NCBI GenBank assembly: GCA_029067805.1
Contig: JAIEDW010000323.1
Location: 1-43,371 of the forward strand
DNA from: Lachnospiraceae bacterium
Lineage (GTDB): Bacteria > Bacillota > Clostridia > Lachnospirales > Lachnospiraceae
DNA: 43,371 bases
Direction: 5' to 3'
The position numbers were made by a program, and so were the translations under genes. The stretch's first letter is position 1, and each line of letters begins with the position of its first letter. The notes under the pieces were generated by a model. The model worked only from the letters and a program-made list of their open reading frames with translations. It was not told the origin of the DNA and searched no databases. Below are positions 28,185 through 43,371 of this stretch, piece after piece.

Positions 28185-29594
28185 TCAGTACGCGTTTTTG
28201 TTGACAAAGCCCTTAAAAAAGGTGAGAAATAAAATTTTAAAGTCAAATACGATTGACCAGTTTTCAATATAGTATAAGTCATATTCAATGCGTTTTCTGA
28301 TCGAAGTATCTCCCCTATAGCCGTTTACCTGTGCCCAGCCCGTAATTCCGGGGCGCACCTGATGTTTAATCATGTATCGCGGTATTTCCTCCTTAAACTT
28401 TTCGACAAAAAGAGGTCTTTCGGGACGCGGTCCGATCAAGCTCATGTCCCCCTTCAATACATTAAACAACTGCGGCAGCTCATCAATACTTGTCTTTCTT
28501 AAAATTTTTCCGACCCTTGTCACTCTCGGGTCATTCTTTTTTGTCCAGCCCTTTTTCTCGTCCTCTTCGGGCTGCTGCTCCATACTTCTGAATTTATACA
28601 TTTGAAACGGCTTATTGTGAAGCCCGACTCGCTCCTGTTTAAAAATGAGCGGTCCCTTGCTCGTAAGCTTTACGCCGACTGCCGCAAGGAGCATAAGCGG
28701 CGAAAATACAACAATTGCCACAGACGCGCCGAAAATATCCATCAAGCGCTTCGACGCACGGTTTAAGAGATTCGTAAGCGGCACGCGCCTAATATTGACC
28801 ACTGCAAGTCCGTCCAGATCCTCCAAATAAGGACGGCTTGGAATGACACTATTGTAGTCGGGAATGAATTTCGTGTGAACGCCCGACTTTTCACAGATAT
28901 TTACGATCGGTTCAAGCATGTCGTAATCCGACAGTGAAAGCGTGATGCCGATTTCGTCAAACGTCCCTTCCGAGAGCACCTCGCCCAGCATTTCGATTGC
29001 TCCGATTACCTTGACGCCTTTGTAAGAGGCTCCCACAGGCACACGGTCATCGAGAATGCCGTACACCTCGTATCCCCACTCCTGATTGGACGTAATTTTG
29101 TTGATATATTCCTCCGCCGCTCTCGAATATCCCACGAGGAGCATATGCTTTAGGTTATACCCTTTTCTGCGCACATAGCGCAGCATATGTCGTACGCCCT
29201 TTCGCATAAACGATTCTGCAAAAATATTCAGACCATAGAAAACGCCAACGATACCACGCGAGAAGTCGGGTATATTAATCGCAAAAAGCACCACCATGAT
29301 AGCCAGCAGGCCCACAGTGTTTGCCTTTATGATATTGAACACTTCGTACGCCGTCCTGGAAGTCCGCTTCGACGAGTACATATCAAATGCGTTATATAAA
29401 ATCAGATAGCCGGGTACGATTGCTATAAATGCCGCCAGATAAGTCTCTATGGGGAGAACGCCCGTTTCAGGATTGTTTCCCCTGACATAGAAGTTAATCC
29501 AGAAAAACCATGCCAGCCAATAGGTGGCTGCTATCACTAGCGCATCGAGCAGTACCAGCAGTCTGTTGAAATATTTCTGATGATCTCTTATCAA
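28185..29594 (-). CDS. Undecaprenyl-phosphate sugar phosphotransferase (polyprenol transferase, WbaP/CpsE type)
   Basis: This is an initiating enzyme that moves a sugar-1-phosphate from a UDP-sugar to undecaprenyl phosphate, the first step of a surface polysaccharide. The 469 residues contain several N-terminal membrane segments, a Rossmann-like central region (LLVGYSRAAEEY) and the C-terminal catalytic domain. The catalytic domain carries KRLMDIFGASVAIVVFSPLM, FRSM, LRKTSIDELPQLFNVLKGDMS, IGPRPE and VRPGITGWAQVNG. I accept the unusual TTG start at 29594 because GGTGAG sits close upstream and the next Met is too far inside. It has its own promoter and a 5' leader with two small hairpins. The first sugar is uncertain (glucose, galactose or GlcNAc). 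Confidence 0.95.
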   Translation of the reverse strand: MIRDHQKYFNRLLVLLDALVIAATYWLAWFFWINFYVRGNNPETGVLPIETYLAAFIAIVPGYLILYNAFDMYSSKRTSRTAYEVFNIIKANTVGLLAIMVVLFAINIPDFSRGIVGVFYGLNIFAESFMRKGVRHMLRYVRRKGYNLKHMLLVGYSRAAEEYINKITSNQEWGYEVYGILDDRVPVGASYKGVKVIGAIEMLGEVLSEGTFDEIGITLSLSDYDMLEPIVNICEKSGVHTKFIPDYNSVIPSRPYLEDLDGLAVVNIRRVPLTNLLNRASKRLMDIFGASVAIVVFSPLMLLAAVGVKLTSKGPLIFKQERVGLHNKPFQMYKFRSMEQQPEEDEKKGWTKKNDPRVTRVGKILRKTSIDELPQLFNVLKGDMSLIGPRPERPLFVEKFKEEIPRYMIKHQVRPGITGWAQVNGYRGDTSIRKRIEYDLYYIENWSIVFDFKILFLTFFKGFVNKNAY

Positions 29595-29734: not shown

Positions 29735-30715
29735 TTATCCCATAACAAGCCTTATAAGGTTTCCCCAAAGCTCCAACTGGATCTTGATATAATTTCCCAG
29801 CCGCTCCACGCGAAATTTCTGCTTATGCGCCTTTCCTTCGGGAGAAAGCAAAAGTTTTATCCCGTCTGCGAGACCCGACACATATTCTTTTCCCAAACCT
29901 TTCCTAACAAAAAATATTGTCTTAACCGAAAATCCGACCGCAAGAAACGGCAGATTGAGGAGAAGCTGTAATAGCGGCATGTTCTTGTAGACCAGATACA
30001 CACTGTTTCGCGACGCAAGCTTTGTTTTAAAGGCATTGTATCTCGAACCGCTTGTCGCGCTGCCCGCATGATATACGACGGCATTTGGCGCAAACTGATT
30101 TTGATAGCCGTGAATTTTGGCGCGATAACCGATATCAATGTCCTCAAAATACGCAAAATGTTCCTCGTCAAAAAGTCCTACCTTCTCGGGAGATAAAAGC
30201 TCTCTCCTGTAGATTGCGCCGCCTGCACACGATGCAAAGATGGCGCGGTTTTTGTCATAGCGGGCAGGATTTTTCCCTTTTCCCCGCGCAAACGCCCAGC
30301 CGAGCGCACAGTAAAAATCACCCGCATCATCCGTCTTGTCCTTGTCATAAAGCGAAATCAGCTTTGCCGATGCGGAAAATACTTTTTTTTCCCGATCGTC
30401 GTCCAGAACCCGTTCCAATTCCCGAACAAATGTTTTCTCTACTCTCGTATCATTGTTTAATAAAATCACATAAGGCGTTTCGCTCGCCTCAATTCCTTGA
30501 TTGACGGCTACGCTAAAGCCCGTGTTTTCGTTATTTTGAATCAGACGCACCTGCGGAAATTTTGTTTCAATCAAAGAAACGCTGCCGTCGGTTGATGCGT
30601 TATCGACAACGATGACCGCAACATCCGCGGTTGTGCCTGTGAAAATACTTTCCAGACATTGTTCCAGATAAGTTATCCCATTGTAATTTGGTATCACAAT
30701 TGTCGATTTTGCCAT
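29735..30715 (-). CDS. GT2 family glycosyltransferase
   Basis: This 326-residue GT-A enzyme starts with STIVIPNYNGITYLEQCLESI, has VDNASTDGS, the acceptor region GFSVAVNQGI and the metal-binding ILLNNDTRVE. The conserved EDIDIGYRAKIHGY lies near the active site. The C-terminal part has a hydrophobic stretch around LPFLAVGFSVKTIFFV that may associate with the membrane. I choose ATG 30715 (MAKSTIV), 6 bases after GGGAG, rather than the in-frame upstream start at 30739. It follows another GT2 gene by 39 bases and is the last gene of the GtrA-GT2-GT2 run. Donor sugar unknown; dTDP-rhamnose is common in this subgroup. Confidence 0.88.
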   Translation of the reverse strand: MAKSTIVIPNYNGITYLEQCLESIFTGTTADVAVIVVDNASTDGSVSLIETKFPQVRLIQNNENTGFSVAVNQGIEASETPYVILLNNDTRVEKTFVRELERVLDDDREKKVFSASAKLISLYDKDKTDDAGDFYCALGWAFARGKGKNPARYDKNRAIFASCAGGAIYRRELLSPEKVGLFDEEHFAYFEDIDIGYRAKIHGYQNQFAPNAVVYHAGSATSGSRYNAFKTKLASRNSVYLVYKNMPLLQLLLNLPFLAVGFSVKTIFFVRKGLGKEYVSGLADGIKLLLSPEGKAHKQKFRVERLGNYIKIQLELWGNLIRLVMG

Positions 30716-30754
30716 GTTTATCTCCCATGCTGCCCGCAATCGGTCATTTGTTTT

Positions 30755-32119
30755 TTATTTCCGCACACATGTCGGGTCCAAAAGAAGTCTTCCCCCTGCC
30801 TTGCGCAATTGTGCGCCGAGCCTTTTATTCAGCTTTTCCAGTGCATGTCCGCCTTCCGCTTTTTCCAGGTCCTTGATCCATTGCGGCAATTCTCTTTTTG
30901 TTTCCGCTACAAAAGTTGACTCATAGGAATGTCCTGTCACCTTCTCATAAATCGGTTGATATTCCTTGTTCACTTCAAGATTTCTGATATCCAACGCGTC
31001 AATGTTCTGATACAGATCCATGCGATTCATATAGCCCGCATAGACGAGAGGCTGTCCGCGGTAAATTCCGCTTGCAATCTTTCCGTGCTTTGCCACATAA
31101 CCTCCCACCGCTGCCAGGTCCGGTCTGTGCGTAAGCACGTTATTTCGATATTCTATTCGATAAAAACCCAGATGTTTATTGTGGCGTACATCACCTTTCC
31201 AACCCATGCGGTTTACAAAATCAATCAGCGCCTTTTTTCCCGCCTCATAAGCGTACATCTTGCTCTGCGGGTTATCCGCCGTCGAATTTTCGTGACAGCG
31301 CCAGTGATACAGCACTTTGGGCACATGCACAATTGTCTCTTCCATGCGCACAGCGCTTGCGTTCTCTCTTTCCCTGAGCAAAAGTGTGCTTACAATGCGC
31401 AACACCAGATCATAATCCTGTGAACCGTCATATTCCTTTCTGATACTGAGTTTCTTTATAAGCTGTGTTTCCACCACAGTAAAGTGGCAGATGTAGTTGT
31501 TCGTCAATATCAGATCCAAGTTAAAATCCAGTTTAAAATGCGGATCATAAAAGCTTGTCCCCGACGAGTCGCATTTATCTTCGTCCGAATACACAAGAAT
31601 CGGTCTTTTTTCGTCCTTTTTATTCTTTATCGCATGCGCCATCTCATACAGCGCATCGGGAGTGAGCATATCGTCATGATCCAAAAGCCCGCAATAATCC
31701 CCTTTTGCAAGCTCGATCGCTTTGTTTGTATTCTCCGCGATGCCGCCGTTTTCTCCAAGCCGTTCGTAACGGATCCGCGCGTCGCTGTAAGCCGCGACGG
31801 TTTCTTTCACAACATCGCTTTTACTACCGTCCGTGATGATCAGCTCCCAGTTTTCGTACGTCTGTTCAAGACAGCTGTCAATGAGCGCCTTTAAATAGAC
31901 TGCCTGTGTTTCAAACGCGGGCACCAAAATCGAAAACCGAATGTCTTTTACGCTCTTATCGTTTTTCTGCCGCGCAAGCTCGTCCTCATCGGGCTTGCGG
32001 TAGGTATAATCTTTATGGTAATTTGCCGTCATACGCTCCCACGCTGCAAAAAAAGTTTCGCTGTATCCGTTTTTTCTGCTGTAGTTAATTGTCTTTTTAA
32101 TATTTTGCGCTAAACTCAT
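30755..32119 (-). CDS. GT2 family glycosyltransferase
   Basis: This 454-residue enzyme has an N-terminal YYW-type leader region, a GT-A domain (about 60-290: FSILVPAFETQAVYLKALID, ITDGSKSD, GLLDHDDMLTP, DGSQDYDLVLR) and a C-terminal region (HRPDLAAVGGYVAK) that looks like the tail of a second, shortened domain. It is homologous to the first domain of the 659-residue glycosyltransferase at 34524-36503, sharing DHDD, LVYSDED and NNYICHF-type motifs, so the two arose from one ancestor. The start follows GAGG. It lies 13 bases after gtrA, indicating one transcript. Donor and acceptor unknown. Confidence 0.87.
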   Translation of the reverse strand: MSLAQNIKKTINYSRKNGYSETFFAAWERMTANYHKDYTYRKPDEDELARQKNDKSVKDIRFSILVPAFETQAVYLKALIDSCLEQTYENWELIITDGSKSDVVKETVAAYSDARIRYERLGENGGIAENTNKAIELAKGDYCGLLDHDDMLTPDALYEMAHAIKNKKDEKRPILVYSDEDKCDSSGTSFYDPHFKLDFNLDLILTNNYICHFTVVETQLIKKLSIRKEYDGSQDYDLVLRIVSTLLLRERENASAVRMEETIVHVPKVLYHWRCHENSTADNPQSKMYAYEAGKKALIDFVNRMGWKGDVRHNKHLGFYRIEYRNNVLTHRPDLAAVGGYVAKHGKIASGIYRGQPLVYAGYMNRMDLYQNIDALDIRNLEVNKEYQPIYEKVTGHSYESTFVAETKRELPQWIKDLEKAEGGHALEKLNKRLGAQLRKAGGRLLLDPTCVRK

Positions 32120-32132
32120 CTATTAAATACCT

Positions 32133-32570
32133 CTATCTTTTTTCAAGGAAAATCTTTCTGCTGATAAAATTATAGACCATTACGACTGCCGTTGCAAAAA
32201 TCTTGGAAACCGCAAACCAAATTGTATCGTTAAAGATCTTTAAGAAGTCGCTCGCCTCATAGCCTGCACTGCACGCAAGGAGCAGCGCCTCATTCAGACC
32301 CAGTCCTATCAAACTCAATATTACAAAAATTACAAACTCTTTTTTTCTGCTCATATCCTCCTTGCGCTCGAACACAAATTTCATGCTGAGGATATAATTA
32401 ATCACGACCGATATGGTAAAGCCGAAAAAGCCTCCGACTCCCGTCGCGAAATTTCTTGTCGTCCCGTTTATCAAAATATGGAAAAGTCCTGTAGATATCG
32501 CAAAATCAATCAAAAAACACACGACACCGACAAAACCGAATTTGACGATCTGTTCCAGTAATTTTTTCAT
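32133..32570 (-). CDS. GtrA family membrane protein
   Basis: This 145-residue protein has four hydrophobic segments and the family pattern KFGFVGVVCFLIDFAIS, GFFGFTISVVINYILS and FKFVFE-like loop (MKFVFERKED). GtrA proteins are thought to move undecaprenyl-linked sugars across the membrane for glycan decoration. The start follows GAGG at 6 bases. It heads a three-gene run with two GT2 enzymes, which fits a decoration module: a flippase-like protein with its transferases. No promoter is clear; transcription may leak through the phosphosugar mutase terminator. Confidence 0.9.
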   Translation of the reverse strand: MKKLLEQIVKFGFVGVVCFLIDFAISTGLFHILINGTTRNFATGVGGFFGFTISVVINYILSMKFVFERKEDMSRKKEFVIFVILSLIGLGLNEALLLACSAGYEASDFLKIFNDTIWFAVSKIFATAVVMVYNFISRKIFLEKR

Positions 32571-32678: not shown

Positions 32679-34406
32679 TTAACTTTCGATAACAGCTTTG
32701 ACTGCATTAGTCAAATCGTCGCTCTTCTTCTGTGCGTCCTCAAGGCTGGTTCCCTTGACACCCATGTAGAATTTAATCTTCGGCTCTGTGCCGGAAGGTC
32801 TTGCGCAGCACCATGAGTCGTTTGTCAGGTCAAAGTAGAGTACATTGGACTTCGGAAGTCCTGTTGTTCCTTTCTCGTTTGTTTCCATGTTGACAACAAC
32901 ATCATTTGCGTAATCTCTAAACTGTGTCACCTGAAGCTCTCCAAACGCCTTGGGCGGATTATTTCTGAATTTATCCATGAGCGCCGCAATTTCCTTTGCG
33001 CCATCAATACCTTTCATGGTAATCGAATACTGTGTTTCCTTATAGTATCCGTATTTCTCGTAAACGTCGATCATCATATCCCAGAGCGTCATATTGTTCT
33101 TCTTGCACCATGATGCAACTTCCGCAAGCATCATCACCGCAACGATTGCATCTTTATCTCTTGCATGTGTGCCAACAAGGCAGCCATAGCTCTCCTCAAG
33201 ACCAAACGCATAGGAATTAGAGCCTGTCTGCTCAAAGAGCTTAATCTGCTCGCCGATATACTTAAATCCTGTAAGAACCTCAATCAGCTTGACATCATAT
33301 GCCGCTGTGATGGGCTTTGTCATATTTGTTGTAACAATCGTTGTTACGAGTGCGGGATTCTCGGGCATGGTGTTTGTCGCTCTTCTTTCGCGCAAAATGT
33401 ACTCCGCGATCAGCATTCCCGACATGTTTCCGGTAAACGGCACATACTCGCCGCTCTTTGTGTCAAGCGCATATACGCCGAGACGGTCCGCATCGGGGTC
33501 TGTCGCCATAACGATATCGGCGCCCTTTTCCTTCGCAAGCTTTAAGGCAAGCGTAAATGCCTTCGGATCTTCGGGATTGGGATAATCCAATGTCGTAAAG
33601 TCGGGATCCGGAAGCTCCTGCTCGGGAACAACGTAAACATTTTCAAATCCAAGCTCCTTTAACACACGTCTTACAGGGATATTTCCCGTGCCGTGGAACG
33701 GTGTGTATACAATCTTGATATCCTTAGATACTTCCTTGATAATTTCAGGGTGAATGCTCTGCTTCTTTAATTCTACCATGTACGCATCGTCAATTTCTTT
33801 GCCGATAATCTCGTAAAGTCCCTTTGCCATCGCCTCTTCCTTCGGCATAGTCTTTACGTTATGATAATCCGTGATGGCTCTTACCTCACCGATGATGCCT
33901 GTGTCATGCGGAGGCGTTACCTGTGCGCCGTCCTCCCAGTATGCCTTATATCCGTTGTACTCGGGCGGATTGTGGCTTGCCGTTACTACAACGCCTGCGA
34001 TACAGCCAAGCTTGCGCAGCGCAAACGAAAGCTCCGGTGTGGGTCTGAGCGAATCAAAGACATATGCCTTGATGCCGTTTGCCGCAAGGCAGCGTGCCGT
34101 TTCATCCGCAAACTCAGGACTCATGCGTCTTGAGTCGTAAGCGATCGCAACGCCCTTTGATGCGCCGCCCTGTTTGATGATATAGTTTGCAAGACCTTGT
34201 GTTGCCTTACGAACCGTATAGATATTCATTCTGTTTGTACCTGCTCCGATGATTCCGCGCAGACCGCCGGTACCAAACTCAAGTTCTTTGTAGAAGCGTT
34301 CCTCGATTTCGCTTTCATTGTCCTTAATCTTTAAAAGCTCATCCTTTGTCGCTTGGTCAAAGTAATCATCTTTGAGCCAAAAGTTAAATTCGTCCATAAA
34401 ACTCAT
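32679..34406 (-). CDS. Phospho-sugar mutase (phosphoglucomutase/phosphomannomutase)
   Basis: This cytoplasmic enzyme interconverts hexose-6-phosphate and hexose-1-phosphate, feeding nucleotide-sugar synthesis. The 575 residues show FGTGGLRGIIGAGTNRMN (44-61), the phosphoserine loop TASHNPPEYNGYK (S144), the metal-binding DPDADRLG and the phosphate-binding RPSGTEPKIKFY near the C-terminus. I use ATG 34406 because GGAGGT lies 6 bases ahead; the ORF could begin 12 codons earlier but without such a site. It has its own promoter and terminator inside the glycan cluster. Glucose and mannose specificity cannot be separated by eye; the length matches the clostridial PGM type. Confidence 0.94.
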   Translation of the reverse strand: MSFMDEFNFWLKDDYFDQATKDELLKIKDNESEIEERFYKELEFGTGGLRGIIGAGTNRMNIYTVRKATQGLANYIIKQGGASKGVAIAYDSRRMSPEFADETARCLAANGIKAYVFDSLRPTPELSFALRKLGCIAGVVVTASHNPPEYNGYKAYWEDGAQVTPPHDTGIIGEVRAITDYHNVKTMPKEEAMAKGLYEIIGKEIDDAYMVELKKQSIHPEIIKEVSKDIKIVYTPFHGTGNIPVRRVLKELGFENVYVVPEQELPDPDFTTLDYPNPEDPKAFTLALKLAKEKGADIVMATDPDADRLGVYALDTKSGEYVPFTGNMSGMLIAEYILRERRATNTMPENPALVTTIVTTNMTKPITAAYDVKLIEVLTGFKYIGEQIKLFEQTGSNSYAFGLEESYGCLVGTHARDKDAIVAVMMLAEVASWCKKNNMTLWDMMIDVYEKYGYYKETQYSITMKGIDGAKEIAALMDKFRNNPPKAFGELQVTQFRDYANDVVVNMETNEKGTTGLPKSNVLYFDLTNDSWCCARPSGTEPKIKFYMGVKGTSLEDAQKKSDDLTNAVKAVIES

Positions 34407-34480
34407 ACTGCTACCTCCACAATTCAATATTTGTATTGCCAAGAAATATTTTCCTTGACTGTTAAATTTTACATAATTCT

Positions 34481-34523: not shown

Positions 34524-36503
34524 TTAACATGGTTTTTCGACGCGCAGCGAATAATCACTGTGATCAAGCGAAAAATTGGGATTATAGTAGGGGTCACCCT
34601 TCTCCAAAAACGCCTTCCATTTCTCGCGAAAACGCGCCGATTCCTCCTCGTAACGCTTCGCCTTCGCCTCATCTTCCACATCCACACCGCGCGAAGCCGA
34701 CTCAAAGTGGTAAAGCTCCGCAAACGGCGTAAACACGTTCAAATAGCCCTTTTCTCTGACCCGAAGGCAGAAATCCACATCATTTAACGCTACTTTAAAT
34801 TCCTCGTCCAGTCCGCCAAGCGCATCATAGATGCTCTTTTTCACCATAAGACACGCGCCCGTGACAGCCGACACATTCTGCGCATAGCAAAGCCGTCCCA
34901 TATATCCGAGGTTGTCGTAATTGATTTTATAGTGTGTGTGCCCTGCCGTTTTGTGTGCGCCGAGCCCCACGACCACACCCGCATGCTGTATCGTCCTGTC
35001 GCCGTAATAAAGCTTTGCGCCGACCGCCCCCACGTCGGGACGCTGCGCATACATCAGCATTGCCTCAAGCCAGTTCATTGAAATGACCTGCGTGTCATTA
35101 TTTAATAACAGCAGATATTCTCCTGTCGCAAAGCCTGCGCCAAAGTTGTTAATGCGGGAATAATTGAATTCTCCTTTATAAGTAACTACTGTTATTTTTT
35201 CTTCATTCTCCAATGTCTGATAGTAGTCAAACGTCGCTTTTTCGGCGCTGTTGTTTTCGATTACGATAATTTCATAATTCTCATAGGTGCTGCGCTCCTT
35301 AATCGAATCGATGCAGCGTCTTAAATCGTCCACATGATCCTTGTTTGGTATCAAAATCGAAATTTTATCCACACGCGCAATCTCATATTTTATCTCAAAG
35401 ATGGTATCAAACGCTCTTGTGCCCTTGATCTCAAAGTTCTTAAAGCCACAGCTTTGTAAGTGCGCCGCAACTGCGCCTTTTGCCGCCGCAATCGCGTATG
35501 GTTTTGCGCTGATATCGCTTGCCACGCTCGCTTTGTGGGAACGCCAGTAATACATCAGCTTTGGCACATGGACCACCTTTTTGGCGTTTGCGGTGAGGCG
35601 TAAGATCATGTCGTGATCCTGACTGCCGTCGAATCCGCTGCGAAACAGCTCTGTGCCCTCCAAGAGCGCACGCGCAAACACGCTAAAATGACAGATGTAA
35701 TTGTTTGCACGAAGGTTGTCGGGCGCAAAGTCGGGCTTAAAGTGCAGCGTGATCATGTTGTCAATGCTGTCGCCCTTAAAGGTCGTTTCGTCGCAGTAAA
35801 TATAGTCTGCCCCCTGTTCGTTGATAACCTTCACATACTCGTACAAAACAGACGGGTGAAGCACGTCATCATGGTCAAACAACCCGATATATTCGCCTGT
35901 CGCCATTTCATAACACCTGTTTGTATTTCCCGAAATGCCCTCGTTCTTCTCAAGCCGTCTGTATACGATGCGCTTGTCCTGTTCCATATATTCCCTGCAG
36001 CGCGCTTCCACCTCGTCATGTTCGTGGTCGGAACCGTCTGCAAGACATAACTCCCAGTTTTGATACGTCTGCGCAAGGACCGATTCGATCATCTCGTTTA
36101 AGAAATTGAGCGGAGTGTTATACAAGGGCACAAGAATACTGATCTTCACCATACGCGCAAATGTTTCCTGACTCTGCCTTTTTGCCTCCTCGGGCGAAGG
36201 AAAGCTTGCCGTACCGTGCAGTTTTTTTGCCTGTGCCTCGATTTTTTTCTGTTTGAGCTTCCTTGCGATTCCTTTTGGACCGCCTAAGTTGCGCAGTCTT
36301 CTGTAATTGCGCAGTCCCCAATGCATTGTCTGTCTTAAGGGCTTTGACGCTTTCCAAAGCGGATTGTTTTTGATGCGGTCAAGTTGAAACTGTAAATTGT
36401 CCGCCTCGTTTTTGGCATCCGCAAGTCTTCCCGCCAGTGCCGCGGCACGCGCTTTTTCCTGCTCATACGCCTGTTTGTAATCCATGTCTTTCTCGTTTTC
36501 CAT
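34524..36503 (-). CDS. Two-domain GT2 glycosyltransferase with N-terminal coiled coil
   Basis: This 659-residue enzyme has an N-terminal coiled coil (about 8-46), a linker rich in Lys/Gln, and two complete GT-A domains. Domain 1 (118-330) has SILVPLYNT, ADGSDHEHDE, GLFDHDDVLHP (D210-D213) and DGSQDHD. Domain 2 (378-600) has SILIPNKDH, VIENNS, LLLNNDTQV (D470) and LNDVDFCLRV. Both metal-binding sites look intact, so it could add two kinds of linkage, as in bifunctional polymerising GT2 enzymes. The start follows AGGGG at 8 bases. It is the last of three related GT2 genes and 120 bases ahead of the mutase start. It is a paralogue of the enzymes at 36545 and 38634. Confidence 0.88.
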   Translation of the reverse strand: MENEKDMDYKQAYEQEKARAAALAGRLADAKNEADNLQFQLDRIKNNPLWKASKPLRQTMHWGLRNYRRLRNLGGPKGIARKLKQKKIEAQAKKLHGTASFPSPEEAKRQSQETFARMVKISILVPLYNTPLNFLNEMIESVLAQTYQNWELCLADGSDHEHDEVEARCREYMEQDKRIVYRRLEKNEGISGNTNRCYEMATGEYIGLFDHDDVLHPSVLYEYVKVINEQGADYIYCDETTFKGDSIDNMITLHFKPDFAPDNLRANNYICHFSVFARALLEGTELFRSGFDGSQDHDMILRLTANAKKVVHVPKLMYYWRSHKASVASDISAKPYAIAAAKGAVAAHLQSCGFKNFEIKGTRAFDTIFEIKYEIARVDKISILIPNKDHVDDLRRCIDSIKERSTYENYEIIVIENNSAEKATFDYYQTLENEEKITVVTYKGEFNYSRINNFGAGFATGEYLLLLNNDTQVISMNWLEAMLMYAQRPDVGAVGAKLYYGDRTIQHAGVVVGLGAHKTAGHTHYKINYDNLGYMGRLCYAQNVSAVTGACLMVKKSIYDALGGLDEEFKVALNDVDFCLRVREKGYLNVFTPFAELYHFESASRGVDVEDEAKAKRYEEESARFREKWKAFLEKGDPYYNPNFSLDHSDYSLRVEKPC

Positions 36504-36544
36504 CGTACTTTCCCCTCTTATTTTTCATTCTCTCGATAACGCTG

Positions 36545-38608
36545 TTATAATTCAAAATGATCTAAAATCACAAACTGCCTTCTGTGCCCACACTTTACGA
36601 CAATGCCGACACTATACTTTCCTTTTGGAATCTGCGCGGCATCAAATTTCACGCAGATACCCGAAAGAGCCGTGTTTACCGTGCGGTGTTCCTCCGCAAA
36701 AAGCGCCTCTGCATCGCGGCGCAGTTTCGGAAACAGTTCTGCCTCATAAAAGTTAAAGTGTGGAGTAAAAATCCAGAGCTTTTTGACGAGCTTTGCATTA
36801 TTTCGTTTGCGCAAAACATGCCAACCGTCAATCGTCACTATACCGTCTTCCTGCGCAATTTTGTCAATATGAAACAGATGACGGTCTTCCCCTGTCAGCT
36901 TATTATATAGTTTGGCAAGCCGGACGTGAGATTGCTTTAATTTCGATTGAACGGTTATCCGAATAAACCACATTAAAAGCGGTCTGTATTCTTTCGCATT
37001 CTTTGTAAACGGCTTTAACTCCACAGTAATTGGCTTTAACTGCGTCGTTTTGTCACACGGGTATTGATAATTGATATGGTACGCCGCGTCCTTCTCCCAC
37101 TGTACAAGGTTTGGACTGTAAAAAGGATCGGGCATCTGAACCTTGGGCGATGCCCACGGATGCTTGTCATACAATTTTCGCTTTTCGCGCAAAAGCCGCG
37201 CCTGTTTTTCGGGCGTGGTGTCCTCTCCGCGGCTGAGTGACTCGTGATGAACTAAAAAGGCGCTGTTTACAACGACATTGTATAATCCCATTTGATAAAG
37301 CCGAAAGCATAGCTCAACATCATTATACGCCACTGCAAGTTCCTCGTCAAAACCACCCGCGCGCTCAAACTTCTTGCGTGACACCATCATGCATGCCGCT
37401 GTCACGGCAAGCATATTGTAATCCGCAAGGTTGTGCCCGTGATAGAGATTCCCTTCGTCCGGCATTCCGCAAAGCTTATGCGCCGGTCCGACTGCCATGT
37501 TTGTAATGCCCGCATGCTGGATCAAATTGCCGTCGGGGTAACGGAGTTTGATGCCCACAGCCCCCACATGCTCCATCGCCGCATAGCGCGTCATCTTTGC
37601 AAGCCACCTTCCGTCCGACTGCGTTTCGTCGACCTCAATGTCATCATTTAAAAATAACAGAAAATCCCCCTCTGCCGCTTTTGCGCCGCGATTACACATC
37701 TGTGAAAAATTAAATTCCGCTTTCTCGTAAAGATACTTCGCGCCGCACTCCTCCAAAAAAGCGTTTATGCGCATGCGATTGTCATCCTTGCTGCCGTTAT
37801 CCACAATGATCAGCTCGTAATCCATGTCTTTTGCGCACTGCCGAAATGTTTCAATGCATCGCTTCAAGGTTTGCAGGTTATCCTTTGATGGGATAATTAC
37901 GGACAACCGTCCAAGGTTTGCGCGCGTTCCGCCAATGCGCACAGCATCGGTTTTCTCAAAAATATCCTGTTTAAAACAGTCAAGCTCGTTCTTTCCGGAG
38001 AGTTTGTTATTGGTATAAAGCGTCTCGGAGATATGAACAAATTGATCCTCCCCATGCGTACCGTCCCGCATCGCGGCTACTCTGCGCGAAAGGGATCTTA
38101 CAAGTTCGCAAAGCGGCATATCGCCGCCAAACGCGTCTAAAACTTCCGTAATCACCTGTCCTTTCAGCGCAAAAATACTGCCAATATAAAAAAACGATTC
38201 CAGTGTATCCGGCGAAAACTCCGGCTTAAACCAAGGCTCTCCCCGCAAAAGACCATGTGTGGTCTTTTCTTCAATTGAATACAACTCCTTAGGCGTTCCA
38301 TAGTAATCCTCGTCCGCATAGACCACCAACGCCTCCCTATGCTCCGAAAACGCCCTTGCGATCAACGCACACGCTTCATCACACAGTACACCGTCCTCGC
38401 GGACAAACAGATAAATTGTTTCCCGCTCGATGCGCTCTGCACAGCTCTTGCCTAACACAGCCTTTACGCTGTCCTTACACGAAGAAAAGGGAAACACGCA
38501 AATCGGTTTCCCCGTATCTTTGATATCAGCGGTATTTGCAATCTCTCTGTCCTTGAGCCACTGCAAATACGGTGTGCACTGTGCAAAAAGCTCTTTTTTA
38601 TAATCCAT
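36545..38608 (-). CDS. GT2 glycosyltransferase with degenerate first domain and C-terminal beta module
   Basis: This 687-residue paralogue of its two neighbours has an N-terminal half (60-200) that keeps the outline of the first GT-A domain (YLFVREDG, VVYADED, WFKPEFSPDTLESFFYIG) but lacks the DHDD and QDHD motifs. An intact GT-A domain (235-460) follows: SVIIPSKDN, IVDNGSKDD, FLNDDIEVD (D322, D323), YNDVELCF and HHESLSRGED. The C-terminal 100 residues are a beta-rich module (GIVTIDGWHVLRKRNN to FVILDHFEL) like that of the next gene. I use ATG 38608, 9 bases after AGAGG, as the in-frame start at 38647 lies inside the neighbour. Donor sugar unknown. Confidence 0.87.
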   Translation of the reverse strand: MDYKKELFAQCTPYLQWLKDREIANTADIKDTGKPICVFPFSSCKDSVKAVLGKSCAERIERETIYLFVREDGVLCDEACALIARAFSEHREALVVYADEDYYGTPKELYSIEEKTTHGLLRGEPWFKPEFSPDTLESFFYIGSIFALKGQVITEVLDAFGGDMPLCELVRSLSRRVAAMRDGTHGEDQFVHISETLYTNNKLSGKNELDCFKQDIFEKTDAVRIGGTRANLGRLSVIIPSKDNLQTLKRCIETFRQCAKDMDYELIIVDNGSKDDNRMRINAFLEECGAKYLYEKAEFNFSQMCNRGAKAAEGDFLLFLNDDIEVDETQSDGRWLAKMTRYAAMEHVGAVGIKLRYPDGNLIQHAGITNMAVGPAHKLCGMPDEGNLYHGHNLADYNMLAVTAACMMVSRKKFERAGGFDEELAVAYNDVELCFRLYQMGLYNVVVNSAFLVHHESLSRGEDTTPEKQARLLREKRKLYDKHPWASPKVQMPDPFYSPNLVQWEKDAAYHINYQYPCDKTTQLKPITVELKPFTKNAKEYRPLLMWFIRITVQSKLKQSHVRLAKLYNKLTGEDRHLFHIDKIAQEDGIVTIDGWHVLRKRNNAKLVKKLWIFTPHFNFYEAELFPKLRRDAEALFAEEHRTVNTALSGICVKFDAAQIPKGKYSVGIVVKCGHRRQFVILDHFEL

Positions 38609-38633
38609 AGCTTCTGTCCTCTTTTTTCGCCTT

Positions 38634-40718
38634 TTACGCGTCCTCAATCACCAGCTTTTTCTCCATGTTCCGATAAAGCCTCTGCCTTGAACATGCGTCC
38701 TTTGCGGTCATCCAGAGCTCGTAAGCGCCGGGCGCGAGCGTTCCCTCAAAGATCCAACTGCAAAATCCTGTAAGCTCCACGTTGACCTCGCCGGGTAAAA
38801 TTGCCGCGACATCTTTTCTGTAACGTTTCTGCACGGGCAACTCCCAAACACTCCCCTCTTCGTTTACCAAAAGCATCTTATATTGATAGCGCGCATTGTC
38901 GGCGCCGGGTACATAAGCCCAGCCCTTGATGAGATAATACGATTTTTTACGCTCGCCGTTCTTTGTCACGGCTTTCACAAATTTTTCCTTTCCGCACTCC
39001 TCGACCACAACCATGATCGCATTGTTCATGGTGTTAAAATCAGGCAGCTTTTTCCCCTCTAACAGCTTATCATCGCAGTCGGACAAATTGACAAGTTCAT
39101 ATCCCTCCAGCCAACGGCTGATATATTCGGGACTGCCGCTGTTCATCACTGTACCGATAAACGGATCCTGTCGGTAAAGCCTTCTGTGTCTTTTATACAA
39201 CAGGTTTCTCTCCGCCGTCAGACGCTTCAGTTTCGCTTCGTCCTGCATATCGTCGCCGCGGCTTAATGATTCATGATGATAAAACACGACATCGTTTCGC
39301 TGCACGTTGTAAAGTCCCTTACTGCAAAGCCGAAAACACAGATCTACATCATTGTACGCGACCGCAAGCTCCTCAAAAAGCCCGCCAAGCGCCAAATAGT
39401 AATCCTTGCGCATCATCAAACATGCCGCCGTAACACCGATCATATCATAGATAAAACGATTTCTGCCATAGTAATACGAAACGCTGTCATCAAACTTTTT
39501 TAGCTTATGTCCGGGACCTGATACCGTGTTTGTGATACCGGCATGTTGGATCAGAGTAGAATTCGGGTACAAAAGCTTTGCGCCCACTGCGCCCACATGC
39601 TTAAGCGATGCCTGTCCCACCATTCTCAAAAGCCAGCTGTCATCCACAGCCTCCATATCGTCATTCAGCAAAAGAATATATGTTCCCTCCGCTTCCTTTG
39701 CGCCGACATTGCACATACGGGAAAAATTAAATTCCATCGGGATATAGAAATACCGAAACGGACACTCCTGTTTAAAGTTCTCAAGCGCGACGCGGACCCG
39801 CGCCGTGCTGCCGTTATCCACCACGATAATCTCAAAATTTTTATATGCCGTGTGCGCATAAATAGAACGGATACACTGCTTGAGTGTGTCTTCATTATCT
39901 TTTGACGGGATAATGATGCTGACAAGCGGCTCCTTCTCAAGTTTGTATATTGGGTAAGAAATCCCTGTCTTTTCATTGACAATCTGATACCCTTTGAGTC
40001 CGCGACGCGCCATTGCCGCTTCTCTTATCATATCATACTGACTGCCCACACCGATAAAGTCCGTGGAATGCATCAGCTCCTCCTCAATCTGAGCACGGCT
40101 CTCTCCTTTTTTGTAGGCGTGAAACAGCACCTTCTCAATATGCCCCGGACGCTTTTCGTTCTCCGTTGCCTTAAGCGCGAAATCATAAATATTTTTCCTG
40201 TAATCGTCGTTTCCGAGCCATTCGATGTCCTTGAATGCCGCCGTCCGAATCGCGAAGATATTGCCAAAGTAAAAAAACGAAAACAACGTGTCGGGCGACC
40301 ACATCGGCTTTGCCCACGGAAAAATACGGTGCACATCCTTATCATCCGCATCCGCCGGGCTGTCATCGGGACAAATCCGCCAGACATCCTCATCCGCATA
40401 CACCACATTCACCTCGGCATGGGTATCAAAATACCGCATGATCTCCCGGAAAGCATTGACCGCCATCCTGCCGTTTTCGGACACAAACAGGAGAAAATCC
40501 TTATTGTAATCGGCAAGAGAAAAATTTCTTCCACAGCGCTCCATATAGACCACGCCAAGCGACGGAAACGACTCTTCCCCACCTTCGTCCGATGTCTTTT
40601 CGTTCTCCCTGATCCACAGCAGATAAGGATCCGTCTGATACCGCAACTCGTTCTCATATTCCTCTCTGCATTTTTTATATAGTTTTTCCTGTAAAAAACC
40701 CTTTATTTTATCAAGCAT
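38634..40718 (-). CDS. GT2 glycosyltransferase with degenerate first domain and C-terminal beta module
   Basis: This 694-residue enzyme is a close relative of the one at 36545. The first domain (50-200) retains VVYADEDVW and WAKPMWSPDTLFSFFYFG but reads VSENGRMAV where a DHDD motif should be. The second domain (265-490) is intact: VSIIIPSKDN, VVDNGS, LLLNDDMEAV (D353, D354), YNDVDLCF (456-463) and HHESLSRGDD. The C-terminal 130 residues form a beta-rich module (YYLIKGWAYVPGADN). The start follows AGGGG. It lies 23 bases after the methyltransferase-kinase gene and ends 25 bases before the next GT2 start, all one transcript. The inactive first domain may bind acceptor or partner. Confidence 0.87.
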   Translation of the reverse strand: MLDKIKGFLQEKLYKKCREEYENELRYQTDPYLLWIRENEKTSDEGGEESFPSLGVVYMERCGRNFSLADYNKDFLLFVSENGRMAVNAFREIMRYFDTHAEVNVVYADEDVWRICPDDSPADADDKDVHRIFPWAKPMWSPDTLFSFFYFGNIFAIRTAAFKDIEWLGNDDYRKNIYDFALKATENEKRPGHIEKVLFHAYKKGESRAQIEEELMHSTDFIGVGSQYDMIREAAMARRGLKGYQIVNEKTGISYPIYKLEKEPLVSIIIPSKDNEDTLKQCIRSIYAHTAYKNFEIIVVDNGSTARVRVALENFKQECPFRYFYIPMEFNFSRMCNVGAKEAEGTYILLLNDDMEAVDDSWLLRMVGQASLKHVGAVGAKLLYPNSTLIQHAGITNTVSGPGHKLKKFDDSVSYYYGRNRFIYDMIGVTAACLMMRKDYYLALGGLFEELAVAYNDVDLCFRLCSKGLYNVQRNDVVFYHHESLSRGDDMQDEAKLKRLTAERNLLYKRHRRLYRQDPFIGTVMNSGSPEYISRWLEGYELVNLSDCDDKLLEGKKLPDFNTMNNAIMVVVEECGKEKFVKAVTKNGERKKSYYLIKGWAYVPGADNARYQYKMLLVNEEGSVWELPVQKRYRKDVAAILPGEVNVELTGFCSWIFEGTLAPGAYELWMTAKDACSRQRLYRNMEKKLVIEDA

Positions 40719-40741
40719 ACCTAACCCCTATTTTCGGCAGT

Positions 40742-42844
40742 TCATCCATTTTCCGAACTGTTCCCTTTTTTTATCTTTTGTTTTACAAAACATTTTGTTT
40801 TTGTTAAAATGTCCTGCCTTGACGCCTCCTCCTCAAGTTTTGCCGCAAGGATTTCGGGCAATTCCATAACCTCCATGTCAACATGAAAGCGTCCTCCGCC
40901 GGTCACGTCAATCGTGATATTCGGATCGTTATTGGCAAAGATCAGACTTCCACAGGAATGCCAAAAACCATTCGTTTCCATGTCCTTCCCCACATAAAGC
41001 CTGTCATTTAACATCACACTGCGTATGCCGACCACGCAGAAAAACGAGCACGGATCGATGCGGACGCGCACAACTTCCGGCGCAATGTCATAATCAATGC
41101 ACAGGTTTTGCAGTCCGACATAACAGCCCTTTAATTCCGCGCTATGCTCCTCGCAAAAGCCCTCACCATAGTCAAAATAAAGCTTTGCCACAAACTTTGT
41201 ATCCACATAATGACAATACCCTAACATTCCGTCGAACTCGTAGGCGCGGTTTCCGATCAGTTCCCGCATCGCGCTCACGGAAACTCTGTCGCCATTCATC
41301 CGCAACTGAAATGCCTGCTCCCGTTTCACAGCCGCATCGATGTCCTCATCCGAAAGTCCTAGAATTTCTCGCAGCAAAAGCGTTTCGCATTCTTTTCTTG
41401 TCTGGCCGCCAAGCATGTAATTATAGAATGCCCGAAAAGCAATCTCCTTAGACGAAATTTTTTCTTCCACCGTCCACTCATAGTCGATCACATGCCACTT
41501 ATCACCCTCTACAAGAATATTCGAAAAGATAAAATCAATGTTGGAAACTGCCGCATCCTCGCCGTAATGCAGCCATTCCATATATTCCATGATCAGCGTT
41601 CGAAAACCGGACATGTCATTTCTGCTTTGGCAGTCATCAAGCATCGACTCTAACGTCACACCCTTACAGTATTCAAACACCAGTCCGTTTCTGATATCGC
41701 CATCCTTCGGACTGCACTTGTTAATTTCTATTTTTGTCCCCGCATAACGCTTTGTCAAAAGCGCGTACGCCTTCTGCGTATTTTTCAGATGTTCATACGC
41801 CGCCTCCGTATCCGGAAGCTTTTCCACCTGCATCTGACCGGATGCGTTCTTTACAATTTTTGTCCGGATCGCCCACTTCGGATCCCTGTCATTTGAAAAC
41901 TTCGCATACAGCGTTTCCGGCACTCCGCCCACGACCAAAAGATAGGAATTCGAAAACAATGGGAACTCATCTTCTGCGATAATTTCATCGAACACCTGTT
42001 TTTCATCAAATAAAAGCGCCCGCTCCCTGTCAAAATTCCTGAGATTATTGGAAAGCTCGCCTTTTTTCGGAAGATACCCGTCCGAATACACAGTCGTCAT
42101 AAATTTATAATCGGGATAGGGATAATAAAAGGCATATTCCTCTATTCCCACACGTTTTAAAATCGCTTCCAGTCCATGCCTTGTAAACGTCCTTGCAGAA
42201 CCGCCCTCACGGTAGCCCTCAAGTCCCGAAAAATAAGTTCCCAGATGATCTTCACGGCAGCCCGCCCAATATTTTAATCCAAACTTATTTTCAATCGCTA
42301 TGATCAGTCTGCCATCCGGTTTTCTATGGCGATTACAGATGCGCATAAAATCCTCGTAAGGCGTATCTCCGCCAATATAAGCGTGGCCGTACTCGAACAC
42401 TCCAATCAGCATCACATAGTCAAAATCTTCTTCCAAATGCGGCTCAATATCCTTAAAATTCCCGACCTTGACAGTGATATTATCATATTCCTTGTTTCTA
42501 TATGCATTCACAAGACTGCGTTTTTTTGACAGATCAATGCATGTGACGCTCCCCGCACGTTTTGCAAGCGCTCCTGTAATCGCACCGCAGCCGGAACCAA
42601 TTTCCAGTATTTTATCCGTCTTTTTGATTGGAAGCCAGTCGATGATATTGGTGCGAAACGGCGAAAGGTGATAAAATATGGGCCAGCTCTTCTTCTCCGC
42701 GATAATCCGCGCAAACGCCGAGGGCGGATTGTTTTTGGCAATCTCCAAAAGCTCGTCCTCGATCGCGCCGTCCGTATAGAAATCCTCGCCGGAATAATCG
42801 GTCAAGTCCAGTGTCACACTGCCTACCATTTCTTTATCCGTCAT
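40742..42844 (-). CDS. Methyltransferase-kinase fusion (WbdD-like), candidate glycan chain terminator
   Basis: This 700-residue protein joins an N-terminal class I methyltransferase (about 50-250; motif I ILEIGSGCGAITGAL at 79-93, VTCIDLS, then VMLIGVFEY) to a kinase-like domain (about 320-480). That domain has a hinge-like GLVFEYCKGVTLESML, a catalytic loop with D437 and N442 at the D-x4-N spacing, and a metal aspartate D454 in HVIDYEW, like choline/aminoglycoside kinases. A beta-rich C-terminal domain (555-655) and a short helix follow. Methyltransferase then kinase is the domain order of WbdD, which caps E. coli O8/O9a chains with methyl(phosphate) groups. Its neighbours are a Wzt-type gene upstream and GT2 genes downstream. 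AAAGGAG is 13 bases from the ATG, rather far; an ATT start 12 bases earlier in frame is possible. Confidence 0.8.
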   Translation of the reverse strand: MTDKEMVGSVTLDLTDYSGEDFYTDGAIEDELLEIAKNNPPSAFARIIAEKKSWPIFYHLSPFRTNIIDWLPIKKTDKILEIGSGCGAITGALAKRAGSVTCIDLSKKRSLVNAYRNKEYDNITVKVGNFKDIEPHLEEDFDYVMLIGVFEYGHAYIGGDTPYEDFMRICNRHRKPDGRLIIAIENKFGLKYWAGCREDHLGTYFSGLEGYREGGSARTFTRHGLEAILKRVGIEEYAFYYPYPDYKFMTTVYSDGYLPKKGELSNNLRNFDRERALLFDEKQVFDEIIAEDEFPLFSNSYLLVVGGVPETLYAKFSNDRDPKWAIRTKIVKNASGQMQVEKLPDTEAAYEHLKNTQKAYALLTKRYAGTKIEINKCSPKDGDIRNGLVFEYCKGVTLESMLDDCQSRNDMSGFRTLIMEYMEWLHYGEDAAVSNIDFIFSNILVEGDKWHVIDYEWTVEEKISSKEIAFRAFYNYMLGGQTRKECETLLLREILGLSDEDIDAAVKREQAFQLRMNGDRVSVSAMRELIGNRAYEFDGMLGYCHYVDTKFVAKLYFDYGEGFCEEHSAELKGCYVGLQNLCIDYDIAPEVVRVRIDPCSFFCVVGIRSVMLNDRLYVGKDMETNGFWHSCGSLIFANNDPNITIDVTGGGRFHVDMEVMELPEILAAKLEEEASRQDILTKTKCFVKQKIKKGNSSENG

Positions 42845-42887
42845 ACGAATAACAATGCTCCTTTCTCAGATTAAAAATCTCTGATTT

Positions 42888-43371
42888 TTAATTTGTCTTC
42901 GCGTCCGTTACCGTCACCTTAGAGTCCATATCGTAATAACCCACAGTATCCTTGTCGGAAACCACAGTCACGTTCAGAGCGTCATAAAGTCTGTGGTATA
43001 CCTGAAAATCATCGCCGTTATAGCCTGTAACGCCGAAAGAAATCAGATATTCTCCGCCCTGAAGCGACATTTTCTGTGTAAAGCAGATATCCTTCACTGC
43101 TCCCGCCTTTACAGGCTCTAAAAACGCTTTCTCAAACATCGTGTTCGTGCCTGTGATTTCCGTGCCCTTTGCCGTCTTTACGGAAAACGCAAAGATTGGT
43201 GCGGGCAAATCACTGAAAAAGCGTACTCGCATGTGTATCTGAAACTCCGCGCCCTTTATGATCGCATTTGTGCGCGTACCGTGGTCGTCTACGATATAAA
43301 ACGCCTCAATTTCCGCCTCTTTTGTGCCGTATTCGAGCGTTTTGACACTCTCTTCCAATGCTTGTTGTGCA
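42888..43371 (-). CDS. C-terminal carbohydrate-binding domain of a Wzt-type ABC exporter ATPase, partial
   Basis: The frame is open from the right edge; only the last 160 residues are seen. They match the C-terminal glycan-binding domain found on Wzt ATPases of ABC-type O-antigen exporters: a beta-sandwich with DDHGTRTNAIIKGAEF, IFAFSVKTAKGTEITGTNTMFE, LQGGEYLISFGVTGYNGD and VYHRLYDALNVTVV. An in-frame TTG at 43358 has no ribosome binding site and codons continue upstream of it, so I treat the gene as truncated by the window. The ATP-binding domain and the partner permease (Wzm) would lie to the right. It is 43 bases ahead of the methyltransferase-kinase gene. Confidence 0.82.
   Translation of the reverse strand, partial: AQQALEESVKTLEYGTKEAEIEAFYIVDDHGTRTNAIIKGAEFQIHMRVRFFSDLPAPIFAFSVKTAKGTEITGTNTMFEKAFLEPVKAGAVKDICFTQKMSLQGGEYLISFGVTGYNGDDFQVYHRLYDALNVTVVSDKDTVGYYDMDSKVTVTDAKTN

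What the first reader, a model, noticed from the sequence alone, without database searches (positions are those of the whole stretch)
34524..43371. A Wzt/WbdD-like cap-and-export glycan locus in a Gram-positive genome
A Wzt-type carbohydrate-binding domain, a methyltransferase-kinase fusion and three large GT2 enzymes follow each other on one strand with gaps of 23-43 bases. In E. coli O8/O9a, WbdD (methyltransferase then kinase) caps the non-reducing end of the chain, and the C-terminal domain of Wzt recognises the cap before export. The gene and domain order here is the same, and no Wzx/Wzy pair is seen. If correct, a Clostridia cell-wall polymer would have its length set by methyl/phosphate capping.
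Basis: partly seen in the sequence, partly recalled or inferred. Interest (0 to 1): 0.8.

Follow-up and report, generated by a model that had tools for sequence, protein, structure and literature searches.

The report
Capped wall-glycan export locus, Lachnospiraceae
This stretch carries the core of a gene set by which a spore-forming gut bacterium probably builds a rhamnose-rich surface sugar chain, caps its end with a combined methyl-transfer and kinase enzyme, and exports only capped chains; it resembles a well-studied E. coli system, but the enzyme looks only distantly related and its chemistry is untested.

Summary
The window is a whole contig of a fragmented Lachnospiraceae genome; contig C354 overlaps its right end by 97 bases (99%) and carries the missing Wzt ATPase, Wzm, RmlC, a GH25 lysozyme, RmlA and RmlB. 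The 700-residue fusion is modelled confidently (pLDDT 91) as methyltransferase, protein-kinase-like domain and beta domain. WbdD is the top PDB match of the whole model. By sequence only the methyltransferase motif is alike: the kinase is not detectably WbdD's kin, the domains sit differently, and no WbdD-type coiled coil is seen. In 250 genomes of the family, 119 of 120 with this kinase also encode Wzt_C. Elsewhere methyltransferase and kinase occur as separate neighbours or fused to glycosyltransferases, mostly in Wzt loci. An initiating sugar transferase, GT2 enzymes and an LCP ligase complete the run, pointing to a rhamnose-rich wall polysaccharide exported Wzm/Wzt-style after capping. Cap chemistry and length control are inferred. 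Gram-positive precedents exist: the methyl cap of Geobacillus and the cyclophospho-rhamnose cap of C. difficile Ox247. I rate it a new variant of a known kind.

The parts
42888..43371 (-). C-terminal carbohydrate-binding domain of Wzt (residues about 290-450 of the full protein; the ATPase half lies on contig C354 of the same genome)
   Evidence: PF14524 4e-42; PDB 2r5o 6e-7, whose printed residues equal those of E. coli HS O9 Wzt; 97-base contig overlap with C354, 98.97%; full-length Wzt of a same-genus relative is 31% identical over 434 residues to E. coli HS O9 Wzt
40742..42844 (-). Methyltransferase-kinase fusion, 700 residues: SAM methyltransferase about 1-305, protein-kinase-like domain 312-505 (K342, D437, N442, D454), C-terminal beta domain about 553-661, then two helices, the last at low confidence
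   Evidence: Pfam methyltransferases; AlphaFold2 pLDDT 91.3; Foldseek top hit WbdD; conservation in 73 sequences
41330..41911 (-). Kinase domain (residues 312-505)
   Evidence: AlphaFold2 alone pLDDT 93.3; Foldseek RIO2, Bud32/PRPK, JAK2; profile vs PDB sequences GCN2 5e-4, JAK2 2e-3
38634..40718 (-). Large GT2 glycosyltransferase, probable rhamnosyltransferase of the chain
   Evidence: PF00535 2.6e-20; best BLAST label of the ORF directly downstream of the fusion in 62 of 77 loci; rhamnosyl specificity is inference
36545..38647 (-). Large GT2 glycosyltransferase (start probably at the internal ATG, 38608)
   Evidence: PF00535 1.3e-15; relatives align from residue 12-16
34524..36503 (-). Tandem GT2 glycosyltransferase (two GT2 domains), 77-98% identical in the 26 genus loci L025-L050
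   Evidence: PF00535, two stretches, 2.5e-46
32679..34442 (-). Phosphoglucomutase/phosphomannomutase, next gene of the cassette
   Evidence: PF02878-PF02880; PGM label in 49 of 80 loci, loci cut short included
32133..32570 (-). GtrA-like membrane protein (side-chain sugar donor flipping, inferred)
   Evidence: PF04138 1.7e-16
30755..32119 (-). GT2 glycosyltransferase
   Evidence: PF00535 4.9e-23
29735..30739 (-). GT2 glycosyltransferase
   Evidence: PF00535 2.8e-23
28185..29594 (-). Initiating undecaprenyl-phosphate sugar-phosphate transferase (by its domains; the WbaP/WsaP comparison is recalled)
   Evidence: PF02397 1.7e-74 with PF13727
26832..28124 (-). LytR-CpsA-Psr ligase, expected to link the chain to peptidoglycan
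   Evidence: PF03816 8.9e-33
25818..26750 (-). GT2 glycosyltransferase at the end of the run
   Evidence: PF00535 3e-12

Best explanation
The locus makes a rhamnose-rich cell-wall polysaccharide by the ABC-transporter-dependent route. A sugar-phosphate transferase starts the chain on undecaprenyl phosphate, dTDP-rhamnose comes from RmlA/B/C (RmlD is elsewhere in the genome), and the large GT2 enzymes lengthen the chain in the cytoplasm. The fusion protein then ends it: its kinase domain phosphorylates the non-reducing terminal sugar and its methyltransferase adds a methyl group, most simply to that phosphate as in E. coli O9a. The Wzt C-terminal domain binds this cap, Wzm/Wzt exports the capped chain, and an LCP enzyme links it to peptidoglycan. 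Shown: genes, order, predicted folds, conserved catalytic residues, co-occurrence. Inferred: substrate, cap chemistry, recognition, length control. Length would follow from competition between elongation and capping rather than from a WbdD-type coiled-coil ruler, which is not seen.
For: Wzt ATPase, Wzm, RmlC, RmlA and RmlB directly upstream on an overlapping contig; RmlD elsewhere in the genome, 9.7e-89. Initiator, GT2s, GtrA and LCP downstream. Kinase fold at pLDDT 91-93; the whole model's best PDB matches, ranks 1-3, are WbdD. D437/N442/D454 match WbdD D351/N356/D369 in spacing (5+12 vs 5+13); D437 in 72 of 73 (one X), N442 and D454 in 73 of 73. Kinase-positive genomes carry Wzt_C in 119 of 120, against 26 of 130 kinase-negative ones. 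Wzt_C lies 0-2.5 kb upstream, same strand, of 98 of 112 kinase places entered, one per genome. Methyltransferase and kinase occur as separate neighbouring genes in Wzt loci (L177, L178, L185; L187). Same gene order as E. coli HS O9.
Against: No chemistry of any such polymer was seen. Kinase kinship to WbdD is not detectable (hhalign probability 1%; no kinase HMM hit), and WbdD is not among the 50 rows printed of the kinase-only fold search. The WbdD fold match has TM 0.19-0.31 and rmsd 17-20 A, so the domain arrangement differs. G444 has the cassette with a strong Wzt_C but no methyltransferase or kinase after Wzt. G171, G550 and G587 have Wzt_C and the module on different contigs, with no Wzt label in the stretches fetched around the module. 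G406 has methyltransferase-kinase without Wzt_C; its locus has a Wzm-like ORF and a 252-residue Wzt-like ORF too short to hold a CBD. One divergent kinase copy, in L181, appears to have Q in place of D437.
Confidence: 0.65

Rival explanations
1. Capping and export as above, but the cap is not methyl-phosphate: either the methyltransferase methylates a sugar hydroxyl and the kinase phosphorylates another position or makes a cyclic phosphate, or the two domains act on different residues.
For: C. difficile Ox247 glycan ends in 2,3-cyclophosphoryl-rhamnose. Geobacillus and A. aeolicus have plain methyl caps. In several Lachnospiraceae loci the two activities are separate proteins.
Against: The two domains are fused or neighbouring in most of the loci examined, as in WbdD, where the methyl goes on the phosphate (for WbdD).
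Confidence: 0.22
2. The kinase-like domain is not a catalyst of capping but a structural or regulatory part, or phosphorylates the lipid carrier or the reducing-end primer.
For: Kinase sequence is far from known kinases (best PDB sequence match 5e-4). The Gram-negative plasmid relatives (Citrobacter, Pseudomonas) keep the methyltransferase strongly (about 1e-52) but score poorly on the kinase (0.067 and 0.0037), and the Citrobacter one has E-R-E-W where the motif has D-Y-E-W (read by eye). One L181 copy seems to lack D437.
Against: K342 in 71 of 73 (two R), D437 in 72 of 73 (one X), N442 and D454 in 73 of 73. In 23 divergent copies K342 is K in all 23 and D454 is D in the 21 that reach it.
Confidence: 0.1
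3. The glycan goes onto an S-layer or other surface protein rather than peptidoglycan.
For: The nearest published Gram-positive cap systems that I saw are S-layer glycans.
Against: An LCP gene sits in the same run; an LCP label appears in 5 of 80 relatives' loci, whose flanks mostly end before that distance. No S-layer protein or oligosaccharyl:protein ligase was seen in the Pfam scans of 30 window ORFs. The Lachnospiraceae R. gnavus glucorhamnan 'appears to be' peptidoglycan-anchored (PMC12413058).
Confidence: 0.08

Closest known systems
E. coli O8/O9/O9a Wzm-Wzt-WbdD O-antigen system
   Same: Gene order wzm-wzt-MTase/kinase-GTs (E. coli HS); Wzt 31% identical over 434 residues including the CBD, and Wzm 23% (using a close relative's proteins); domain order methyltransferase then kinase; WbdD is the top structural match.
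   Different: Mannan versus probable rhamnan; kinase sequence not relatable; interdomain geometry differs; C-terminal beta domain instead of WbdD's coiled coil; no outer membrane expected.
Geobacillus stearothermophilus S-layer glycan (slg) system with WsaE (PMC2943079, passages)
   Same: Gram-positive, Wzm/Wzt, rhamnan, terminal 2-O-methylation by a methyltransferase domain; Wzt predicted by the authors to bind the cap.
   Different: WsaE is methyltransferase plus two glycosyltransferases, with no kinase mentioned in the passages; protein-linked glycan.
C. difficile Ox247 (SLCT-11) S-layer glycan (PMC6254364, passages incl. abstract)
   Same: Clostridia, dTDP-rhamnose, two-component ABC exporter, phospho-rhamnose at the non-reducing end; the authors speculate on an O9a-like role.
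   Different: Cyclic phosphate, protein-linked; the words kinase and methyltransferase do not occur in the held main text.
Lcin_0519 and Lani_1194/NoeA methyltransferase-kinase families (PMC9758233, sections 8 and 9)
   Same: Kinase plus methyltransferase; Lcin_0519 homologues stand beside Wzt and a glycosyltransferase in 27% of 493 neighbourhoods, and also Wzm in 17%.
   Different: Described mainly from Proteobacteria (Lcin_0519) and from Actinobacteria, Bacteroidetes and Alphaproteobacteria (Lani_1194; Clostridium is named). Homology to the window protein was not tested; a NoeA look-up failed.
R. gnavus glucorhamnan and streptococcal polyrhamnose (Rgp/Scc) wall polysaccharides
   Same: Rhamnose backbone; ABC export in the streptococcal case (PMC11754754, passages); R. 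gnavus is also Lachnospiraceae, with a 23-gene cluster (PMC12413058, passages and section 12).
   Different: No capping enzyme is mentioned in the passages I saw; whether the R. gnavus cluster holds this fusion was not tested here.

Membership tests
CBD-dependent Wzm/Wzt polysaccharide exporters | Wzt with ABC ATPase and C-terminal Wzt_C domain in one protein | tested here: met
   Wzt_C in window; ATPase on the overlapping contig C354; both domains in one ORF in a same-genus genome, L026
CBD-dependent Wzm/Wzt polysaccharide exporters | ABC-2 permease (Wzm) beside Wzt | tested here: met
   PF01061 4.4e-17; 23% identical to E. coli Wzm, 7e-19 (relative's protein)
CBD-dependent Wzm/Wzt polysaccharide exporters | CBD binds the capped chain end | not testable with these tools
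   Needs binding assay
WbdD | SAM methyltransferase followed by protein-kinase-fold domain | tested here: met
   (kinase by predicted structure)
WbdD | Sequence homology over the kinase domain | tested here: not met
   hhalign probability 1%, no kinase HMM hit even with filters off
WbdD | C-terminal coiled coil that acts as ruler | tested here: not met
   Residues 553-661 are modelled as a beta domain (pLDDT blocks 90-97 over 551-670), followed by helices 664-676 and 680-697, the last at pLDDT about 45-54; no coiled-coil program was run
WbdD | Phosphorylates then methylates the terminal sugar | not testable with these tools
   Enzyme assay needed
Rhamnose-rich wall polysaccharide loci | dTDP-rhamnose genes plus initiator, GTs and LCP ligase | tested here: met
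Rhamnose-rich wall polysaccharide loci | Rhamnan actually present in the wall | not testable with these tools
   No chemistry available
Lcin_0519 / Lani_1194 methyltransferase-kinase families | Sequence homology to the named proteins | not tested
   Sequences not at hand; a pSymA stretch guessed from recall to hold noeA gave no hit

The most novel reading that the evidence does not exclude
About half of Lachnospiraceae genera carry a kinase-plus-methyltransferase capping module, put together independently of WbdD and shuffled between fused, split and glycosyltransferase-fused forms, that ends their main rhamnose-rich wall polysaccharide with a methyl-phosphate (or phosphate) cap. The Wzt CBD reads that cap before export, so wall-polymer length in dominant gut Clostridia is set by cytoplasmic capping.
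Probability: 0.45. Interest if true: 0.75.

Novelty: new variant of a known kind. Interest (0 to 1): 0.58.

Why it matters
If true, it extends the cap-then-export rule known from E. coli O8/O9a O antigens to the wall polysaccharide of a large family of Gram-positive gut bacteria, and names the enzyme that would set chain length. Wall glucorhamnans of R. gnavus, also Lachnospiraceae, stimulate immune cells (PMC12413058, passages), so a defined terminal cap and a single capping gene would be testable handles. The kinase part matches no Pfam family at 0.001, and comparable proteins are annotated only as methyltransferases (the E. coli HS and Citrobacter ones), which hides the link.

Tried and rejected
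Rejected: chance adjacency (cassette kept across the loci); missing transporter (found); a didermic Firmicute (no Omp85 over cut-off in 36 of 36 genus genomes, one sub-threshold match; SpoVAD in the window); a fold that is not kinase-like; kinship to WbdD by kinase sequence (the methyltransferase motif does align weakly).

Led nowhere: PDB sequence searches with the whole fusion found mainly methyltransferases and no kinase. NCBIfam gave only generic methyltransferase and GT2 models for the fusion and the GTs, under their cut-offs (for the fusion 25 of 41 rows shown). A NoeA comparison failed because the pSymA stretch had no gene table and no HMM hit. Ten literature searches showed, by title and start of abstract, no paper on a methyltransferase-kinase in a Lachnospiraceae glycan locus; two searches listed only 15 of 134 and 15 of 40 papers, the library is open-access only, and the glucorhamnan cluster paper and a review on rhamnose-rich polysaccharides were not held.

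Judged after the fact or limited: the split of Wzt_C into strong (best E 1.1e-37 or better) and weak was set. The adjacency count uses one kinase place per genome and only Wzt_C places of the strong kind; 8 of the 120 kinase-positive genomes had no printed place. Genome samples were limited to 90% completeness or better. The reading of the Gram-negative relatives' kinase region, and of misaligned rows, is by eye. On checking, I added the counter-examples G550, G587, the ATPase-only exporter of G406 and the L181 copy; I left the odds as they were.
Full report
What is there. The window is the whole of contig C250 of a fragmented genome (3.19 Mb, 460 contigs). The five ORFs of the finding are real and lie on the - strand at the stated places. 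The contig cuts Wzt: only its C-terminal domain is inside (PF14524 4e-42; PDB 2r5o 6e-7, whose printed residues equal E. coli HS O9 Wzt). Contig C354 of the same genome overlaps the window's right end by 97 bases at 98.97%. It carries, on the same strand, the Wzt ATPase half (ABC_tran 6.6e-24), Wzm (ABC2_membrane 4.4e-17), RmlC, a GH25 lysozyme, RmlA, RmlB and a cut sulfatase-fold protein. In same-genus genomes a Wzt ORF lies directly before the fusion in all 26 loci L025-L050. RmlD is elsewhere in the genome (9.7e-89).

Downstream in the window come phosphoglucomutase/phosphomannomutase, a GtrA-like protein, two GT2 enzymes, an initiating sugar-phosphate transferase, an LCP ligase and one more GT2. 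None of the 30 window ORFs scanned with Pfam matched a Wzx or Wzy family.

Who it is. SpoVAD marks an endospore-former. No genome of 36 in the genus has Omp85 over cut-off; one has a sub-threshold match.

The fusion. AlphaFold2 on window plus 72 relatives gives pLDDT 91.3 and pTM 0.84: a methyltransferase, then a kinase-like two-lobe domain (strand with K342, helix 350-366, loop 434-442, D454), then a beta domain 553-661 and two helices, the last at low confidence. Foldseek against 350,542 PDB chains ranks WbdD entries 1, 2, 3, 6 and 26, over 489-597 columns, but with TM 0.19-0.31 and rmsd 17-20 A: the same two domains, packed differently; most other rows are single methyltransferases. The kinase modelled alone (pLDDT 93.3) matches RIO2, Bud32/PRPK, JAK2 and macrolide phosphotransferases (122 matches at E 0.001 or better); WbdD is not in the 50 rows printed. 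A profile of the kinase finds GCN2 (5e-4) and JAK kinases among PDB sequences; WbdD is not in the 60 of 79 rows printed. WbdD of E. coli HS (708 residues, with D351, N356, D369, E274 and Y230 in place) aligns only over the methyltransferase motif (BLAST 7e-4; hhalign 2.4e-4, probability 44%); the kinase does not align (probability 1%; no HMM hit with filters off). A control of the kinase profile against an unrelated window GT gave probability 0.5%.

Catalytic residues. In 73 sequences N442 and D454 are invariant, D437 is D in 72 (one X), and K342 is K in 71 with two R. WbdD's D351, N356 and D369 (roles from PMC3482155 passages) are spaced 5 and 13; ours 5 and 12. In 23 divergent kinase copies K342 is K in 23, and D454 is D in the 21 that reach it. 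D437 and N442 score 19 and 20; most exceptions look like misalignment around insertions or a cut end, judged by eye, but one copy in L181 appears to have Q for D437.

Co-occurrence. In 250 genomes of the window's family (249 genera, completeness at least 90% asked), the kinase profile matches 120 and Wzt_C 145. Both occur in 119, kinase only in 1 (G406), Wzt_C only in 26, neither in 104 (Fisher p 7e-44, not corrected for shared descent). Of 112 kinase places entered, one per genome, 98 have Wzt_C within 2.5 kb upstream on the same strand, 9 more lie 2.5-5.1 kb away, and 5 have none on the same contig at that place (G171, G406, G486, G550, G587). G486 has a second kinase copy beside its Wzt_C (places). 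Of 123 genomes with a strong Wzt_C, 118 have the kinase at threshold (cut chosen after the fact). Of the other five, looser profiles find methyltransferase and kinase at the locus in four (G413, G489, G570, G573) and none in G444. Of 22 genomes with weak Wzt_C only G543 has the kinase. Outside the family the kinase is rare: 3 of the 12 positive genomes in a class sample of 291 and 2 of the 6 in a phylum sample of 299. Those three class genomes also have a Wzt-like gene in the same locus; the two phylum ones were not examined.

Modularity. Besides the 700-residue fusion, methyltransferase and kinase occur as separate neighbouring genes (L177, L178, L185, L187), as methyltransferase plus kinase-GT (L172, L176, L184, L188, L191, L193), as methyltransferase-kinase-GT proteins of about 1270-1430 residues (L168, L170, L171, L174, L181), as a 1523-residue protein without a GT label (L192), and as a kinase-RgpF-HAD protein (L169). 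Regrouping of the same two activities, mostly near Wzt, suggests that they serve one pathway. Counter-examples: G444 has Wzt followed directly by PGM. G171, G550 and G587 have Wzt_C and the module on different contigs, with no Wzt label around the module (L191-L193). G406 has the module in a locus with a Wzm-like ORF and a 252-residue Wzt-like ORF without a CBD (L190), so the module does not always go with a CBD.

Beyond Gram-positives. A search of plasmids found three records. Two hold relatives of the methyltransferase half, about 31-32% identical, directly after Wzm and a Wzt with Wzt_C: Citrobacter braakii (RmlABCD upstream, an IS630 between) and Pseudomonas asturiensis. The third, a Deinococcus methyltransferase, lies in no such locus. 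The kinase regions of the two score poorly. So this methyltransferase family and its place after Wzt cross the Gram divide.

How it most likely works, and what is known. The arrangement fits the O9a logic: lengthen, cap, recognise, export. Shown here are genes, order, predicted folds, residues and co-occurrence; cap chemistry, recognition and length control are inferred. WbdD's coiled-coil ruler is not seen, so any length control would come from competition between elongation and capping. Published precedents in Gram-positives are the 2-O-methyl-rhamnose end and Wzt of Geobacillus (PMC2943079 passages) and the 2,3-cyclophosphoryl-rhamnose end of the C. difficile Ox247 glycan, whose authors already speculated on an O9a-like role (PMC6254364 passages). 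The Wzt of Aquifex aeolicus is shown to bind a methylated cap (PMC9445017 passages). A kinome survey describes other methyltransferase-kinase families, one partly beside Wzm/Wzt (PMC9758233 sections 8 and 9). In ten literature searches I saw, in titles and starts of abstracts, no report of this module in Lachnospiraceae wall-polysaccharide loci; that speaks only for the rows listed from an open-access library. I therefore file it as working like a WbdD system, not as a WbdD member, and as a new variant of a known kind.

Noticed in passing
L052:2434-3738 and relatives among L055-L134: A GH25 lysozyme gene with a predicted N-terminal hydrophobic segment sits between rmlA and rmlC of the polysaccharide cassette in many relatives; its role there is unclear.
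   Followed up: partly
L179, L180, L195-L201: A second, divergent Wzt_C clade (33-46% to the window's Wzt where aligned) lacks the methyltransferase-kinase. L180, L196, L197 and L199 have a different methyltransferase gene just after Wzt, reminiscent of O8-type capping; the ORFs tested after Wzt in L195, L198, L200 and L201 matched no methyltransferase.
   Followed up: partly
L213 (Citrobacter braakii pF217-3) and L214 (Pseudomonas asturiensis pCC1524): Plasmid-borne Wzm-Wzt-methyltransferase glycan loci in Gram-negatives with a relative of the window's methyltransferase; the Citrobacter one follows RmlABCD.
   Followed up: partly
MT839147, MT836085, MT836982: Three unannotated records labelled Bacteriophage sp. 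from human faeces encode relatives of the fusion (37-46% identical); possibly bacterial contigs rather than phage.
   Followed up: no
L169:2921-6457: A 1178-residue protein fuses the kinase domain with RgpF (rhamnan synthesis) and a HAD hydrolase domain.
   Followed up: no
window 16140-19352: A 1070-residue protein with TPR repeats, DUF4037 and DUF4125; its neighbour at 19373-20173 is a stand-alone methyltransferase.
   Followed up: no
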